This document shows, piece after piece, positions 11,693 to 18,043 of a stretch of DNA of 46,601 nucleotides. The translations under genes were made by a program, and so were the position numbers. Position 1 is the stretch's first letter; every line of letters begins with the position of its first letter. The stretch comes from Leptolyngbya sp. PCC 6406 (lineage in GTDB: Bacteria > Cyanobacteriota > Cyanobacteriia > Phormidesmidales > Phormidesmidaceae), in NCBI RefSeq assembly GCF_000332095.2, contig NZ_KI913949.1, forward strand, positions 4,452,627 to 4,499,227, read 5' to 3'. Below the pieces are notes generated by a model. It did no database searches. It was not told where the DNA came from and saw only the letters and a list, made by a program, of their open reading frames with translations.

Positions 11693-12448
11693 CTAGCGAT
11701 CGCTGAGCAGACCCAGAATGGCGCGGGGGTTGTCCAACTCCCCCACCAACCGCCGTAGAGGTAGCGGCCACACCCGCACTAGGGTAGGCGTCGCAGAAAT
11801 CTGATCCGCCTCCGCCTGTTCGGGATGTTTCGAGACATCGATGACCTTCAAACTGTAGGGACGGTATCGGGAGGTTTCTAAAACCTCTTGAAGGGTTTTG
11901 AGGATAGGTTCGGTCAGGGCAGATTGGCTAGAGACAAAGAGCCGGAGCACCGGACCAGAGCTATGAATTTGGGGTGTTTCCGATAACACGGAGGCAAAGG
12001 CTTCGGGGGCTCGCTCCTGGGAAATATCGAGCACCAAATCATGATCCACCCATAACTCGGAGAACTGGTTCCGATAGGTGGCAAGGACTGCCGGACTGCT
12101 AATCTCGGGGTTGGGATATACCGGCTGCCACTCCACATCCCCCAAGCCAAAGATGCGATTGAGTAAACCCTGATAGCGCCAAACCTGGGGAGCGGCTTCC
12201 GCGACGACATGTAGCCCTTGGGTGGTGGGAGAACGCCAGCAATCCACCGTAGCAGCATAGGTCGGTACCAAGAAGTGGGGCGGTGCCGACAGGGTCAAAT
12301 ATTCTTGAAGTGCCGCGCAGAGGTTGACGTGCCACTGAGATCGCTTCTGCTCATCGCGGCAATAGACCAAATCGCCCCCTGGGGTAAATAGGGCAATGCC
12401 CTTAAACTCCGAGGAGCGATTTGAGATTTCAGTTTCGGAACTTGTCAC
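11693..12448 (-). CDS. Protein with C-terminal KaiB-like (thioredoxin-fold) domain
   Basis: A 251-residue protein. No ATG fits; the GTG at 12448 lies 4 nt after the pilT stop and gives a coupled start. Residues ~15-150 form an uncharacterised domain (FKGIALFTPGGDLVYCRDEQ...). Residues ~165-251 resemble KaiB and the SasA N-terminus: LRLFVSSQSALTEPILKTLQ, YSLKVIDVSKHPEQAE, ISATPTLVRVWPLPLRRLVG. In KaiB-fold proteins this segment is I-x-A-T-P-T-L-V. Being directly downstream of pilT suggests a role in type IV pilus motility, perhaps as a protein-binding module; that is inference. It need not be part of the clock. The stop TAG lies in a CTAG. Confidence 0.8.
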   Translation of the reverse strand: MTSSETEISNRSSEFKGIALFTPGGDLVYCRDEQKRSQWHVNLCAALQEYLTLSAPPHFLVPTYAATVDCWRSPTTQGLHVVAEAAPQVWRYQGLLNRIFGLGDVEWQPVYPNPEISSPAVLATYRNQFSELWVDHDLVLDISQERAPEAFASVLSETPQIHSSGPVLRLFVSSQSALTEPILKTLQEVLETSRYRPYSLKVIDVSKHPEQAEADQISATPTLVRVWPLPLRRLVGELDNPRAILGLLSDR

Positions 12449-12452
12449 AGGC

Positions 12453-13703
12453 TTAGACTCGACCCCGCAGCATCTGGGCCATTTCGTTTTGTCGGGGAGA
12501 TTCTTCGAGGGCAACTTCCTCGGTGATCCGTCCCGACTCATACAGGGTATAGAGGGACTGGTTCATCGTGACCATGCCATCAAAGCCGCATTTGGGCATG
12601 AGGGCTTCCACCTCATCTAGCTCACCCTTGAGGATATAGTCCTTGATGGCATCGGTGTTGATCAGGATGTCGTGGTAGGCGGCGCGTTTGCCGTCAGTCG
12701 TGCGACAGAGCCCCTGGGCAATGACGGCGACGAGGGCTTCCGCCAAGGACACTCGCACGGGAGCTTGCTGCTCCGGCTCGTACAGGTTCAGAATCCGTTC
12801 TACGGTTTTCACGGCGCTATTGGTGTGCAGGGTTCCCATGACCAAGTGCCCCGTTTGGGCTGCTTTGAGCGCTGTGTTGACGGTTTCCTTATCCCGCATT
12901 TCCCCCACTAGGATGACATCGGGGTCTTCCCGCAGGGAGGCTTTGAGGGCACTTTCAAACTTGAGGGTATGACGGCCCACTTCCCGCTGCTTGATCAGGG
13001 ATTTTTGGCTAGTGTGGACAAATTCAATCGGATCCTCAATGGTGACGATGTGCTTGGCCATCTCCTTGTTCATGTAGTCGATCATGGCGGCCATGGTCGT
13101 GGATTTACCCGAGCCCGTTGGCCCCGTGACTAGGATCAGACCCTTGTGGTAGTGGCAAAGATCCTTAAACACAGGCGGCAGACTGAGTTGCTCCATGGTC
13201 AAGATCTTGGTGGGGATCAGGCGGAGCACCATGGCAGGCCCCAGCAGGGTGTCGAAAATATTGATCCGAATCCGGGAGAAGTCGAACTGGGCCGCTCCGT
13301 CAAAGTCGAAGGTTTGCTTGAACTGCTGAATCTCCTCCGGCTTGAGGACTTCCTCCAACCAGCCATAGAACATGGCTTCAGTGATTTTGGGGTAGTCGGT
13401 CATGGCGATCTCACCGCGATCGCGGAATCGAGGCACTTCCCCTACACCGAGGTGAACGTCGGAAAATCCCTTGTCGAAGGCTTCCCGGACGATTTTCTCC
13501 AGGCTAATGCTGCCCTTGGCCGGGGTGGCACCGGGCATGGGGGGCGGCGGGGCAGAGCGGTGTCCCGGTGGCGGGGGCGGGGGCGCAGCGCTGGGGGGGG
13601 GCGCAGCGGGACGAGTACCCGCAGCAGCCGGAGGCCGTCCCGGTGGCGGGGGTGGGGGCATACGGGGCGGAGCGGGAGGACGTTGGGAGGACTCGGCAGA
13701 CAT
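12453..13703 (-). CDS. pilT: Type IV pilus retraction ATPase PilT
   Basis: Hexameric ATPase that depolymerises type IV pili for twitching motility, phototaxis and DNA uptake. After a Pro/Ala-rich disordered head (~residues 8-57), the core begins LEKIVREAFDKGFSDVHLGV. Walker A GPTGSGKST is at ~194-202, the Asp box around IVTIEDPIEFVH, Walker B at LREDPDVILVGEMRD and the His box at AAQTGHLVMGTLHTNSA. Its 416 residues exceed typical PilT by the proline-rich head. The start MSAESSQRPP is preferred over the upstream MLFSTGS. It probably forms an operon with the KaiB-like gene 4 nt downstream. Confidence 0.96.
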   Translation of the reverse strand: MSAESSQRPPAPPRMPPPPPPGRPPAAAGTRPAAPPPSAAPPPPPPGHRSAPPPPMPGATPAKGSISLEKIVREAFDKGFSDVHLGVGEVPRFRDRGEIAMTDYPKITEAMFYGWLEEVLKPEEIQQFKQTFDFDGAAQFDFSRIRINIFDTLLGPAMVLRLIPTKILTMEQLSLPPVFKDLCHYHKGLILVTGPTGSGKSTTMAAMIDYMNKEMAKHIVTIEDPIEFVHTSQKSLIKQREVGRHTLKFESALKASLREDPDVILVGEMRDKETVNTALKAAQTGHLVMGTLHTNSAVKTVERILNLYEPEQQAPVRVSLAEALVAVIAQGLCRTTDGKRAAYHDILINTDAIKDYILKGELDEVEALMPKCGFDGMVTMNQSLYTLYESGRITEEVALEESPRQNEMAQMLRGRV

Positions 13704-14251
13704 AAGGATGCTTCCCGTACTAAATAACAAGGAGATAGAGAAGAGAAATGACGCGCAAATCGCTGTGGGTCAGGGCAATTTCTAACCCCCTCTGACCCAC
13801 CCTGACATCATGGGATGCCGACAGGTAGAGACAGGGAACTGGGGCCAGACTCGGATCGGGGAGACCGGGTAAACGAAACGGACCGCGATCGCAGTACCTT
13901 AACCCTAGATGCCACTGTCCCCAATGATCCATAGATTTCCCAGATGTGCAAGGGAGACGAAAGGCAGGCCCAGATATTTTTGCCCAGTCCCCTACCCAGT
14001 CCCCTCGGGTGGCGGTGTCCCAGGCTAGGCCCAGGGCCGGTTACGGACCGGAAGGTCAGCCCATCCATAAAATTTCCAAAATCCAAAATTCCCGAAATTC
14101 CTGCTGTCAAAGTGAGATCTCTCGGAGTAAGGGAGATAGCCTTGAAGAAAATCTATGAAAGGACTGAGATGGATCGACAAAAATGGAGGCATCCAGTGCT
14201 TCGGTCCCCATCCTCTAGATTTTCTCGGGTTACTTTAGGGCAACGGTCATC
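13704..14251. other. Intergenic region between divergent pilT and kinase genes
   Basis: 548 bp without a recognised gene. It holds one HIP1-like site near 13883 and is locally rich in CCC/GGG. It should contain both divergent promoters, but I cannot pick convincing -35/-10 pairs. Open frames here have no protein-like character. Confidence 0.6.
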
Positions 14252-15670
14252 ATGGTCCAGCTCATGGGGCATCAATTGGGTTCTAGTCTCCCCACCATTG
14301 AGGTATCTCCCAACAGTTTCAAAGACTGTTTGCGGGCGTGGCTGACAGTGGTACGAGACCAACACCTACCTGCTCAAATCTGGGTTAAACTTCCCAGCAG
14401 CGGAGCTTGGCTAGAGGAATTCCAGCAATTCTGTGAGGCGATCACGCCAAGGTCGAGGGTCTATCTGCTGACTCGACAATCGTTGTCCCTAGGAGACTGG
14501 GGGATGTCGGTACCCTTACCCAGGAATCGCCCCCTCCGGGGGGAGTACGGCATGTTGATGGTGGGGCCAACCCTGGGAGCCATGGTGCTGGCCAAACGCC
14601 ACTATCGGGAGGATCGAAGTACCCCAGTACCCCTGAACCCTGACAGTCCTGATGAAGTTAGCTCCTCGCGATCGCAGGTAAGTTTGTCCACCACAGTTCA
14701 GCCCGCTGCCCTCCAGGGGGCCTTGGATGAGCTTCGCCAGTGGGTTCGCCAGAGTGGGGCTGAGCATCCCGACCGTAGTGATTTAGCTGAGTTACTCACG
14801 GACTGGGATCAGCGCTTTGCCTTACCCCTCACCCTTGATGCTGGGGTCGTGGATGCCCTAATGGGCCATATTTGGCAGCAACAAGACCAAAATCGGCGAC
14901 AGATTAAAGCCCTACGCCACAAGGCCATGACGGCCACCAACCTCTCCACCCAAAATGAAGCCCTGATGAATACCCTACGGATTAAGGATGACTTCCTTAA
15001 CTCCGTTGGCCAAGAACTGCGAGCTCCCCTGACCACGATCAAAACTGCCCTGCCGCTCTTGGGGAACACGACGCTTAAGCCCTCGTCGCGCCAACGCTAT
15101 CTAGACATGATTAGCCGCGAGTGCGATCGCCAGAGCACCTTGATTAATGGCGTCCTGGATCTCCTCCAAATCGAAATGAGTGTGGCCACCATTACCCCCG
15201 GCCCCGTCCAACTATTTGATGTGGTGCCGGGAGTGGTCAGCACCTACCAACCCCTAGCAGAGGAAAAGGGGGTACGTTTGGCCTATACCATCTCTGATAC
15301 GCTGCCGTCCGTAGCCTGTCCCGAAAGCTGGCTGCGGCAAATCATGATTCATCTGCTGCACAACAGCATTAAATACACCAACTCGGGTGGCGAAGTCTGG
15401 GTGACTGCGGGCAAGGAGGGGACAGACTGGGTCACCCTGACGGTACGGGACACGGGGGCAGGCATCGCACTCCAGGAAATACCCCTAGTCTTCAAGCATT
15501 TTTATCGAGGCCGCCATCCCCAAGCAGAAGAAGGGGCTGGGCTGGGGCTAACGATTGTGCAGCAACTGCTCCTTTACTGCGGAGGCCAGATTCGGGTAGA
15601 GAGTCAGCCCGGTACGGGAACCCTGTTCCGCATTCTTCTCCCTACCGCCATGGTGGAGGAAGCGCCCTAA
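14252..15670 (+). CDS. Histidine-kinase-like protein lacking the phosphoacceptor His
   Basis: A 472-residue protein with no membrane segment. Residues 1-~235 are a sensor region I cannot name. The DHp helix follows (NTLRIKDDFLN-SVGQELRAPLT), where the invariant His of the H-box (usually S-H-E-L-R-x-P-L) is Gln254, codon CAA at 15011-15013. The ATPase domain is intact: N371 in the N-box, DTGAG (400-404), F-box KHFYRG, GAGLGL (428-433). So it should bind ATP but cannot autophosphorylate on His; it is a pseudokinase or phosphorylates a partner. It is convergent with, and overlaps by 4 nt, another kinase-like gene with the opposite defect. Confidence 0.9.
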   Translation: MVQLMGHQLGSSLPTIEVSPNSFKDCLRAWLTVVRDQHLPAQIWVKLPSSGAWLEEFQQFCEAITPRSRVYLLTRQSLSLGDWGMSVPLPRNRPLRGEYGMLMVGPTLGAMVLAKRHYREDRSTPVPLNPDSPDEVSSSRSQVSLSTTVQPAALQGALDELRQWVRQSGAEHPDRSDLAELLTDWDQRFALPLTLDAGVVDALMGHIWQQQDQNRRQIKALRHKAMTATNLSTQNEALMNTLRIKDDFLNSVGQELRAPLTTIKTALPLLGNTTLKPSSRQRYLDMISRECDRQSTLINGVLDLLQIEMSVATITPGPVQLFDVVPGVVSTYQPLAEEKGVRLAYTISDTLPSVACPESWLRQIMIHLLHNSIKYTNSGGEVWVTAGKEGTDWVTLTVRDTGAGIALQEIPLVFKHFYRGRHPQAEEGAGLGLTIVQQLLLYCGGQIRVESQPGTGTLFRILLPTAMVEEAP

Positions 15671-17286
15671 ATCTCGCGGGTTTCCAGCGGCAAAAACACC
15701 GTTAGCACCTCCCCTTGTGGGGGACGCTGACGCACGATCAGCTTGCCCCCTAGGGCTTGAAACAAAGTTTTGGTCACATCTAGGTTGAGGCTGACACCGC
15801 CTGTGTCGGGAGCCACGCTTAAGAGCTGCCCTAGGGAACGGAGGGGTGGACGCTGGCTCTGGGAATTTCCATCCAGGGGGGGGCTGCCCTCCGTGGGCTG
15901 GGATTCAAACTGGAGCTTCAATTGCGGCCCTGCCAGGGTAACCCGCATCTGAATCTGGCTTTGGGCCGGGAGCCCCTGGGTAAACCATTCCACCACCCCC
16001 GTGAGAACTTGGTGCAGCAGGGTGGGGTCGCTAGTCACGCGGGGTAGGTGGGGGGGCAGGCTAACGATGAGGCTGAGGTTGCGGCGGTGGGCCTGCTGTT
16101 GCCACTGGGGTACGGCGGCTTGAAACACCTGGGCTAGGGCAATGGGGGCTAGAGGGGACTGGGCGCGATGGCCAGGGGTTGGGCGAAGACCATCGTGGGG
16201 GGTTGTGGTCAATTCCGCCGCCCGAAAAATAAGGCTGAAGCGATCAATCTGCTGGGTACATTCTTCGTCAATGCGGCGCAGGCGCTTAGCTACGTCAGCC
16301 CCCACATCTTGACGACGCAACAGCGATCGCGTCAGGGTCCGAATCGTCGTCAGAGGAGTGCGAATTTCGTGGGCCATGGCCTGAAGTAGTTCTACATCAG
16401 GGCTGAGGGGAGATGGACTAGAACGCGAGGATGAAGCCTCCGTCGTCCAGGCTAGGGTGTCGCGACTTCGACCAAAGGTGCCACTACCACCGGAGATCGG
16501 ATGCCAATGGGCCAACTGCAATCCAGACTCTTGCTGAGCAGGAGCCCTGTTGCGGTGGGGTAAATGGGCCACTAGCCCCTGACTAAACTGGGCCACTAAA
16601 CGATAGTCGGGGCTTACCTCGGGGTAGGTGCTGAGGTGCTGTTCTAGTTTGGGGAGGTCAGTATTGTTTAGGGCGGCTACGGCGGTGTGGATCTGGCTCC
16701 AAACCAACTGGAACACCACCGGATCAAAGCTGTACTGAAAAGCCCAGGGTCTGCCGGTGGGCTGTCCCAGGACTAGGGCCAAGCGGAAGGTAGGGGTGAC
16801 TACGAGACAGAACCGCTCTGATAGCAGCGGATCCGTAGAGGCTATTGGGAGGGCTGGAATGGCGGGGGCGGGGGCGGTATGGCCGGTGTTGGCAGCAGGG
16901 AGGAGGGCTCGCCGTCCATTCAGGGCATCAACTAGGGGCTGGGGCGTTATTAACCACAGGGATAGCCGTTGGGTCAACACCGGGTCCGTAATCACAGGCA
17001 ATGGCCCTGAGACCACCGTACCCACTGGGGTTGAAATGGGGGCGTTGGTCGGTCGGGGTAGCAGACTCAACATCTGGGTCAGAGCCGCGATCGCGGCCTG
17101 CCATTCCACCTCAGCAGCCTGACGGTTGCCTCGACGTTGAGAAGAAGTTCCCATTGCGATGGTCAGAGACTGGCCCAAAGGGGCCATCGCACCGTCGCCA
17201 CTAGCGGCTAGCACTTGATCACTAAGGGATATATTGCGGATATCCTCCACGGTCGCCTCCCCCCGGTGTTGCAGGCAGTGCAGCAC
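15667..17286 (-). CDS. Histidine-kinase-like protein with intact H-box and degenerate ATPase domain
   Basis: The listed GTG start gives 539 residues. Residues ~1-290 are an uncharacterised sensor region with Pro/Ser linkers and hydrophobic strands. The H-box LLQAMAHEIRTPLTTIRTL is canonical, with His306. The C-terminal domain aligns to HATPase but lacks the N-box Asn (LLHQVLTGVVEWFTQ), the DxGxG G1 box (LKLQFESQPTEG) and a proper G2 box (TGGVSLNLDV). It probably cannot bind ATP, so His306 would need another kinase. The frame stays open and protein-like for ~53 codons upstream of the GTG, to a MITE end near 17426, without a usable start, so the N-terminus may be truncated. The exact start is uncertain. 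Confidence 0.85.
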   Translation of the reverse strand: MLHCLQHRGEATVEDIRNISLSDQVLAASGDGAMAPLGQSLTIAMGTSSQRRGNRQAAEVEWQAAIAALTQMLSLLPRPTNAPISTPVGTVVSGPLPVITDPVLTQRLSLWLITPQPLVDALNGRRALLPAANTGHTAPAPAIPALPIASTDPLLSERFCLVVTPTFRLALVLGQPTGRPWAFQYSFDPVVFQLVWSQIHTAVAALNNTDLPKLEQHLSTYPEVSPDYRLVAQFSQGLVAHLPHRNRAPAQQESGLQLAHWHPISGGSGTFGRSRDTLAWTTEASSSRSSPSPLSPDVELLQAMAHEIRTPLTTIRTLTRSLLRRQDVGADVAKRLRRIDEECTQQIDRFSLIFRAAELTTTPHDGLRPTPGHRAQSPLAPIALAQVFQAAVPQWQQQAHRRNLSLIVSLPPHLPRVTSDPTLLHQVLTGVVEWFTQGLPAQSQIQMRVTLAGPQLKLQFESQPTEGSPPLDGNSQSQRPPLRSLGQLLSVAPDTGGVSLNLDVTKTLFQALGGKLIVRQRPPQGEVLTVFLPLETREI

Positions 17287-17571: not shown

Positions 17572-17699
17572 GGCCTGTGGACAAGTCATGGGAAAACCCT
17601 TGCCGGGTAGGCATGACCACGCCTACCTTACTGAATCAACCTAGGGGCTGTAACCGCTCCACAATACGGAATCTGGCTTTGATTGTCCCCAGCCCCTAG
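17568..17699. mobile_element. Two further CTAG-bounded elements chained to copy A
   Basis: 17568-17644 runs from the shared CTAG to the next CTAG and has a diverged inverted copy at ~38634-38709 (shared core TGGTCATGCCTACCC). 17641-17699 is a 59-bp element with exact ends CTAGGGGCTG and CAGCCCCTAG. Its right CTAG contains the comFB stop codon (17696-17698). Confidence 0.75.
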
Positions 17700-18043
17700 C
17701 CAAACCAACTAGAGGGCGTCTCAGAGGAGAGGGTCGGGATCCCCTGGTGTTGACATTGGTGCTGGTGCAACAAATGCTGAATTCCCTGGTGAACCAACTG
17801 CCCAATGTGGTGATGTTGCTCCAGCGAATAGCAGTGGGTTGTGGCCTGAAGGGAGCACCCTTGCTTCTCATCCATGGCAGCATACAGAGACGGCATCCGG
17901 CTGAGAACATAGGCGACTAGCTTCTGCCGCCAATCGTTGCTACCGAAGATAGCTTGGTGGGGCTGCATCGGATACTGGCCCAAAACCTCCTCAATTTTTT
18001 CATCGACGACCGGCAAGGCAAGATTCACAATTGTTTGAGACAT
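17696..18043 (-). CDS. ComFB-family protein
   Basis: A 115-residue protein with the ComFB (late competence) domain at ~9-57: LALPVVDEKIEEVLGQYP, then DWRQKLVAYVLSRMPSLYA, the family pattern of helix, D/W-rich turn and A-Y-x-L-x-R-x-P-x-x-Y. Work on cyanobacterial ComFB has identified it as a cyclic-di-nucleotide receptor controlling motility and natural competence through type IV pili, which fits pilT and an EAL protein in this window. GGAG lies 7 nt before the ATG. The tail is His/Gln-rich (LLHQHQCQHQG) and the stop TAG lies in the CTAG end of a mobile element, so the C-terminus may have been altered by insertion. Confidence 0.85.
   Translation of the reverse strand: MSQTIVNLALPVVDEKIEEVLGQYPMQPHQAIFGSNDWRQKLVAYVLSRMPSLYAAMDEKQGCSLQATTHCYSLEQHHHIGQLVHQGIQHLLHQHQCQHQGIPTLSSETPSSWFG

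What the first reader, a model, noticed from the sequence alone, without database searches (positions are those of the whole stretch)
14252..17286. Convergent histidine-kinase-like pair with complementary defects
Seen: the plus-strand protein keeps N, G1, F and G2 boxes of the ATPase domain but its H-box His is Gln254 (CAA at 15011-15013). The minus-strand neighbour keeps a canonical H-box (His306) but has lost the N-box Asn and DxGxG motif. Their 3' ends overlap by 4 nt. Known: histidine kinases often phosphorylate in trans within dimers, and His-less kinases such as DivL exist. Inference: the two may form a split kinase, in which one protein supplies ATP and the other the phosphoacceptor. 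Neither alone should autophosphorylate.
Basis: partly seen in the sequence, partly recalled or inferred. Interest (0 to 1): 0.75.

Follow-up and report, generated by a model that had tools for sequence, protein, structure and literature searches.

The report
Cyanobacterial two-gene split histidine kinase
Two neighbouring cyanobacterial genes each encode half of a working signalling kinase, one able to use ATP but lacking the phosphate-accepting histidine and the other keeping the histidine but lacking the ATP site; both defects are conserved across the phylum, so they look like a division of labour rather than decay.

Summary
P1 (14252-15670, +) is a DICT-HisKA-HATPase protein with Gln254 in place of the H-box His. 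P2 (15667-17286, -) has a DICT-like N-terminus, an H-box His306, and an ATPase domain without DxGxG or GxGxG. In 68 P1 orthologues the site is Gln in 63 (codons CAG 33, CAA 30) and His in only 2 recent tips; ATP-site residues are 68/68. In 188 P2 homologues His is 188/188 and the ATP-lid motifs are gone. All 56 P1-bearing genomes of 126 sampled Cyanobacteriia also encode P2. Where the genes are close they are nearly always convergent (37 of 40 loci, many families). P2 is far more widespread (115/126, including Prochlorococcus-type genomes) and exists without P1 in 59, so the pair is not obligatory. In Gloeobacter- and Thermostichus-type genomes P2 instead precedes a bare, sensorless, ATP-competent kinase ("P3", 14/14 directly downstream). 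Best reading: P2 is the sensor and phosphoacceptor subunit of split kinases, with ATP chemistry supplied by P1 (or P3). No phosphotransfer or binding has been shown. Kind: new variant of split or heterodimeric histidine kinases.

The parts
14252..15670 (+). P1: 472-aa DICT-HisKA-HATPase_c protein with Gln in place of the phosphoacceptor His
   Evidence: Pfam DICT 8.6e-10, HisKA 1.3e-11, HATPase_c 3.9e-26
14285..14599 (+). P1 DICT sensory domain (res. 12-116)
   Evidence: PF10069, 39.1 bits, cut-off 23.8
15011..15013 (+). Gln254 (CAA) at the H-box His position
   Evidence: 63/68 orthologues Gln, codons CAG 33 / CAA 30
15323..15646 (+). P1 intact ATP-binding (CA) domain, N371 / D400-x-G402-x-G404 / G428-x-G430-L-G432
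   Evidence: all seven residues 68/68; HATPase_c 92 bits
15667..17286 (-). P2: 539-aa DICT-like-HisKA-degenerate CA protein
   Evidence: HisKA 2.1e-8; HATPase_c below cut-off; homologues in 115/126 Cyanobacteriia genomes
16552..17115 (-). P2 N-terminal DICT-like sensor region (about res. 58-245)
   Evidence: profile-profile match to the P1 N-terminus, prob 96.2, E 2.4e-9; 3 of 26 P2 homologues weakly hit PF10069
16249..16392 (-). P2 HisKA/DHp with HExxT motif (res. 299-346)
   Evidence: H306 188/188, E307 184/188, T310 188/188
16369..16371 (-). P2 phosphoacceptor His306 (CAC)
   Evidence: sequence; 188/188 conserved
15682..16149 (-). P2 degenerate CA domain: Trp434 at the N-box Asn, no DxGxG, SLNL in place of GLGL
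   Evidence: AlphaFold2 model has the CA sheet but no ordered ATP-lid helix between res. 463 and 483

Best explanation
P1 and P2 are complementary subunits of a split (heteromeric) histidine kinase. Both sense through DICT-type N-terminal domains. They pair through their DHp helices; P1 binds ATP and phosphorylates His306 of P2 in trans; P2, which keeps the full HExxT motif, then hands the phosphoryl group to, and may dephosphorylate, a response regulator encoded elsewhere. P2 is the older and more general phosphoacceptor/sensor subunit. In Gloeobacter- and Thermostichus-type lineages its ATP-supplying partner is probably the bare kinase P3 encoded directly downstream. Shown: the complementary losses, their conservation, the co-occurrence and the neighbourhood patterns. 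Inferred: heterodimerisation, trans-phosphorylation, the response-regulator role.
For: Conserved complementary defects: P1 Gln 63/68 with both Gln codons used and ATPase residues 68/68; P2 His 188/188 with ATPase motifs gone. Gln254 clade monophyletic, 100/98 support; P2 clade 100/100. All 56 P1 genomes contain P2. 37 of 40 linked loci are convergent, 3' end to 3' end, across Leptolyngbyaceae, Nostocales, Gloeocapsopsis, Aliterella, Microcoleus and others. P3, a DHp-CA-only kinase, lies directly downstream of P2 on the same strand in 14/14 genomes that have it, so P2 independently sits beside a second ATP-competent kinase. P2 keeps T310 in 188/188 while P1 has Thr at that site in only about 86% (Ala258 in the window), which suggests P2 is the subunit that faces the response regulator. 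P1 and P2 share sensor and kinase-core architecture. The best structural match of P2 (Z 16.9, rmsd 3.6, 190 aligned) is the kinase region of RetS as solved in complex with the GacS DHp domain.
Against: P2 is present without P1 or P3 in about 45 of 126 genomes, including Prochlorococcus- and S. elongatus-type genomes where all HisKA kinases examined keep His; His306 stays invariant there, so its conservation cannot be due to P1 alone. In most P1 genomes (about 45 of 56) the two genes are not near each other (contig breaks contribute). Two P1 tips have regained His. No interaction, coevolution or biochemical evidence; cis/trans handedness of the DHp loop was not determined. P1 and P2 cores are not joined as sister clades in the tree.
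Confidence: 0.45

Rival explanations
1. P1 is a kinase-null, phosphatase-type or allosteric histidine-kinase-like regulator (DivL/RetS style). Its intact ATP site serves as a nucleotide cofactor or conformational switch; it dephosphorylates a response regulator or modulates P2 or another kinase, and no phosphoryl group passes from P1 to P2.
For: P1 keeps E255 (92%) and mostly T258 (86%), the phosphatase residues of HisKA kinases, although the His is gone. P2's closest folds include RetS and DivL, both regulators rather than ordinary kinases.
Against: The window's own P1 has Ala258; variants with Val/Pro there also exist. All seven ATP-site residues 68/68 suggest catalysis or at least ATP binding is needed.
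Confidence: 0.25
2. P2 is a stand-alone histidine phosphotransferase or pseudokinase (like ChpT or Spo0B in role) that serves a nearly universal cyanobacterial pathway and is phosphorylated by a general kinase or by a response regulator. P1 is an unrelated later arrival, and their adjacency is an ancestral accident.
For: P2 is nearly universal and independent of P1. His is invariant also in P1-less genomes.
Against: Adjacency and convergent orientation recur in many families although most P1 genomes have lost it. P3 gives a second, independent kinase neighbour. P2 homologues are not picked up by the ChpT-type family PF10090 in whole genomes (one of 26 members matches at E 0.06), and P2 keeps a canonical HExxTP H-box.
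Confidence: 0.2
3. Both genes are decaying kinases (pseudogenisation).
For: Each has lost a motif that textbook kinases need.
Against: Long open frames, strict conservation of complementary residues across the class, synonymous codon change at Gln254.
Confidence: 0.02

Closest known systems
CheA3/CheA4 split kinase of Rhodobacter sphaeroides (PMC3591291)
   Same: Neither protein autophosphorylates alone; one supplies the catalytic domain and the other the phosphoacceptor, which also acts as phosphatase
   Different: CheA (HPt) architecture with whole domains missing. Here both partners keep all HisKA-type domains and are inactivated by residue or loop loss; no chemotaxis cluster
Hik36-Hik43 (PilL-N/PilL-C) of Synechocystis (PMC7656254)
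   Same: A cyanobacterial kinase split over two genes, with two-hybrid interaction
   Different: CheA-type split with HPt on one gene; unrelated proteins
HK1-HK2-TcrA of Mycobacterium tuberculosis (Rv0600c-Rv0601c-Rv0602c; listed in PMC8965865; split mechanism from memory)
   Same: HisKA-type kinase separated into an ATP-binding and a phosphoacceptor protein
   Different: Adjacent and with an adjacent response regulator; here there is no linked regulator, and both proteins carry their own DICT-type sensor region
RetS-GacS heteromeric kinases and DivL pseudokinase (PMC4211667)
   Same: Kinase-like proteins that act on a second kinase, RetS by DHp contacts; among the top structural matches of P2; DivL lacks the His
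   Different: RetS and DivL regulate intact kinases; here neither partner is intact
Hik2/CSK kinases of cyanobacteria and chloroplasts
   Same: P3's core is closest to Hik2-type kinases (Hik2 assigned by H-box and GAF-type length, from memory)
   Different: P3 has no sensor domain and forms a separate family by score gap (270-341 bits versus at most 215)

Membership tests
Split histidine kinase | ATP-binding and phosphoacceptor functions lie on two different proteins | tested here: met
   by sequence only:
Split histidine kinase | The two proteins co-occur and the split is conserved | tested here: met
   all 56 P1 genomes have P2; but P2 also occurs without P1 in 59
Split histidine kinase | Neither protein autophosphorylates alone; the mixture phosphorylates the acceptor | not testable with these tools
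   needs protein and labelled ATP
Ordinary HisKA histidine kinase | H-box His plus N, D, F and G boxes in one chain | tested here: not met
   P1 lacks His (63/68 Gln, only 2 His); P2 lacks DxGxG and GxGxG in the family
DICT-domain signalling proteins | PF10069 above gathering score | tested here: met
   P1 39.1 bits versus 23.8. P2 does not reach it; only a profile-profile link
ChpT-type histidine phosphotransferase (PF10090) | Family model match | tested here: not met
   no P2 locus among whole-genome matches at E <= 0.01
DivL-type pseudokinase | Tyr at the phosphoacceptor site, PAS sensors, role with CckA | tested here: not met
   Gln, not Tyr; DICT, not PAS; role with CckA not tested

The most novel reading that the evidence does not exclude
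P2 is a phylum-wide, ancient phosphoacceptor/sensor subunit with no catalytic activity of its own, served by interchangeable ATP-supplying subunits: a bare kinase P3 in early-branching lineages, the Gln-box DICT kinase P1 in many others, and a still unknown general kinase (perhaps Hik2) in Prochlorococcus-type genomes. This would be a modular kinase in which the catalytic subunit is swapped over evolution.
Probability: 0.3. Interest if true: 0.8.

Novelty: new variant of a known kind. Interest (0 to 1): 0.62.

Why it matters
Split HisKA-type kinases are known from only a few single cases. A pair conserved over most large-genome cyanobacteria, with an acceptor subunit kept even by the smallest photosynthetic genomes, would be a natural system for asking how kinase and acceptor roles separate. 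It also marks a nearly universal cyanobacterial signalling protein that cannot work as an ordinary sensor histidine kinase.

Tried and rejected
Recent decay: rejected by conservation. Ancestral His in P1: the two His orthologues are 92-96% identical to Gln relatives, so they are late changes. A Gln-box or His-less, ATP-competent partner in small genomes: none among the kinases examined; the candidates with unusual H-boxes are Hik2-type with HQLRNP. Conserved response-regulator neighbour: none recognised among the 30 commonest neighbour families, judged by eye from their sequences; those I could name are MurE, ComFB-like, acetolactate synthase and menaquinone genes. ChpT-type membership: no family match; Spo0B and ChpT were not among the listed structural matches, which is not informative. 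Sister-paralogue origin of P1 and P2: shared architecture and N-terminus, but the core tree does not join them. Literature: no paper found on DICT kinases of this type; absence in this open-access library is weak evidence. P1-P2 complex prediction was not possible (single chains only).

Full report
WHAT IS THERE. The window lies in a 5.78-Mb cyanobacterial genome; the nearest named P2 relatives are in Halomicronema/Leptolyngbya-type genomes. P1 (14252-15670, +) carries DICT, HisKA and HATPase_c domains, all above Pfam cut-offs. Its H-box reads GQELRAP, with Gln254 encoded by CAA at 15011-15013. P2 (15667-17286, -) carries HisKA with AHEIRTP (His306) and only a fragmentary HATPase_c match below cut-off. 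The 3' ends overlap by 4 nt. One refinement: the N-box Asn of P2 is lost in the window (Trp434) but kept in 62 of 188 homologues; what is lost everywhere is the DxGxG and GxGxG lid.

THE DEFECTS ARE CONSERVED. Over 68 distinct P1 orthologues residue 254 is Gln in 63, Arg in 2, His in 2 and Glu in 1; Gln uses CAG 33 times and CAA 30 times, so the residue and not the codon is kept. The ATP-site residues N371, D400, G402, G404, G428, G430 and G432 are 68/68. The two His-bearing orthologues are 96% and 92% identical to Gln-bearing relatives, hence late changes. Over 188 P2 homologues His306 and Thr310 are 188/188 and Glu307 184/188; regular expressions for DxGxG and GxGLG find no convincing motif (two DxGxG-like strings in the wrong context, no GxGLG). 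In a tree with 52 other kinases the P1 family is one group (100/98) and the P2 family another (100/100, long branch). As a base rate, 45 of 47 other HisKA hits in the same genome have His at this site.

SHARED ARCHITECTURE. Profile comparison links the P2 N-terminus to the DICT region of P1 (probability 96.2, E 2.4e-9) and the kinase cores to each other (99.6, E 2.3e-24). The AlphaFold2 model of P2 (mean pLDDT 78) shows a mixed alpha/beta N-terminal domain, a DHp hairpin and a CA-type sheet without an ordered ATP lid. Its best structural match is the RetS kinase region solved with the GacS DHp domain (Z 16.9, 190 residues, 3.6 A), with DivL at Z 15.1 (220 residues, 5.8 A); rows within 1 of each other are tied, and many ordinary kinases follow closely. 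The P1 model shows the DICT, DHp and CA domains in order.

DISTRIBUTION. In 126 sampled Cyanobacteriia genomes P1 is present in 56 (a 57th match, G264, is at the score level of ordinary kinases and is not counted) and P2 in 115. All 56 P1 genomes have P2; P2 stands without P1 in 59; 11 have neither, belonging mainly to two families. Because P2 is nearly universal and the absences cluster by lineage, this co-occurrence is weak by itself. In an earlier phylum sample P2 was in 88 of 89 members of the class and in none of the genomes outside it.

NEIGHBOURHOOD. Where both lie in one fetched stretch, they are convergent in 37 of 40 loci, most often with less than 300 nt between them; three are same-strand and 2-6 kb apart. 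These loci span Leptolyngbyaceae, Nostocales, Gloeocapsopsis, Aliterella, Microcoleus and others. Within the 126-genome sample, however, only about 11 of the 56 have them within 10 kb. I read this as an ancestral linkage that is often lost; convergent genes are not co-transcribed, so it is suggestive only.

A SECOND PARTNER. It has an H-box His (HQLRNP, HEMRNP or HELRNP) and an intact ATP site. A profile search separates this P3 family cleanly (270-341 bits, against at most 215 for the next, mostly Hik2-length kinases), and in all 14 genomes it lies directly downstream of P2. P1 and P3 are mutually exclusive in this sample except in G239. So P2, which cannot be expected to bind ATP, sits beside an ATP-competent kinase in two independent ways. 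This was not in the finding and is the strongest support for P2 as a subunit.

WHAT DOES NOT FIT. Prochlorococcus-, marine Synechococcus- and S. elongatus-type genomes have P2 with an invariant His but neither P1 nor P3, and every HisKA kinase examined in four such genomes has its own His (not all kinases of the largest were read). There P2 must be phosphorylated by another kinase, receive phosphate from a response regulator, act as a phosphatase, or serve without phosphate. The P1 hypothesis therefore cannot be the whole story of P2.

MECHANISM. Most likely (0.45): P1 and P2 form a heteromer in which the P1 CA domain phosphorylates P2 His306; P2 with its complete HExxT motif exchanges phosphate with an unlinked response regulator; two DICT-type sensors give two inputs. 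In P1 the Thr of this motif is not strictly kept (about 86%; Ala in the window), which fits P2 as the regulator-facing subunit. Main rival (0.25): P1 is a His-less phosphatase or allosteric regulator in the manner of DivL or RetS. Second rival (0.2): P2 is a stand-alone phosphotransferase and adjacency is an accident.

KNOWN SYSTEMS. Split kinases are established for CheA3/CheA4 (PMC3591291) and reported for Hik36-Hik43 in Synechocystis (PMC7656254); a HisKA-type split is listed as HK1-HK2-TcrA in M. tuberculosis (PMC8965865; mechanism from memory). Pseudokinase precedents are DivL (PMC4211667, abstract) and the laboratory-evolved ChrS, whose native form heterodimerises with HrrS (PMC9491836). 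The present pair works like these if the inference holds, but it is homologous to none as a system. I found no paper that describes it; the library is partial.

Noticed in passing
L283 4205-4840, L294 4464-5258, L090 3130-3888 and 11 further genomes: P3: a bare DHp-CA histidine kinase with no sensor domain, directly downstream of P2 in every one of 14 early-branching genomes that have it.
   Followed up: yes
L363 (G000:C1:2561500-2565500), seen in L360: A GAF-HisKA protein in the same genome also has Gln at the H-box (TQELRTP), and its ATPase domain looks lost too: a complete pseudokinase.
   Followed up: partly
L058 and L117: Two P1 orthologues have His at the Gln254 position (CAC, CAT) although relatives 92-96% identical have Gln; they may have regained autophosphorylation.
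   Followed up: partly
L032, L077, L079: One family of P1-less genomes has P2 with AHS or AHG in place of AHE, losing the Glu next to the phosphoacceptor His.
   Followed up: no
window 17696-18043 (-): A ComFB-like protein just upstream of P2; a ComFB-like gene is the upstream same-strand neighbour in 18 loci.
   Followed up: partly
window 11693-13730 (-): A KaiB-domain protein with a 200-residue N-terminal extension overlaps the gene of a PilT-family pilus ATPase, next to P1.
   Followed up: no
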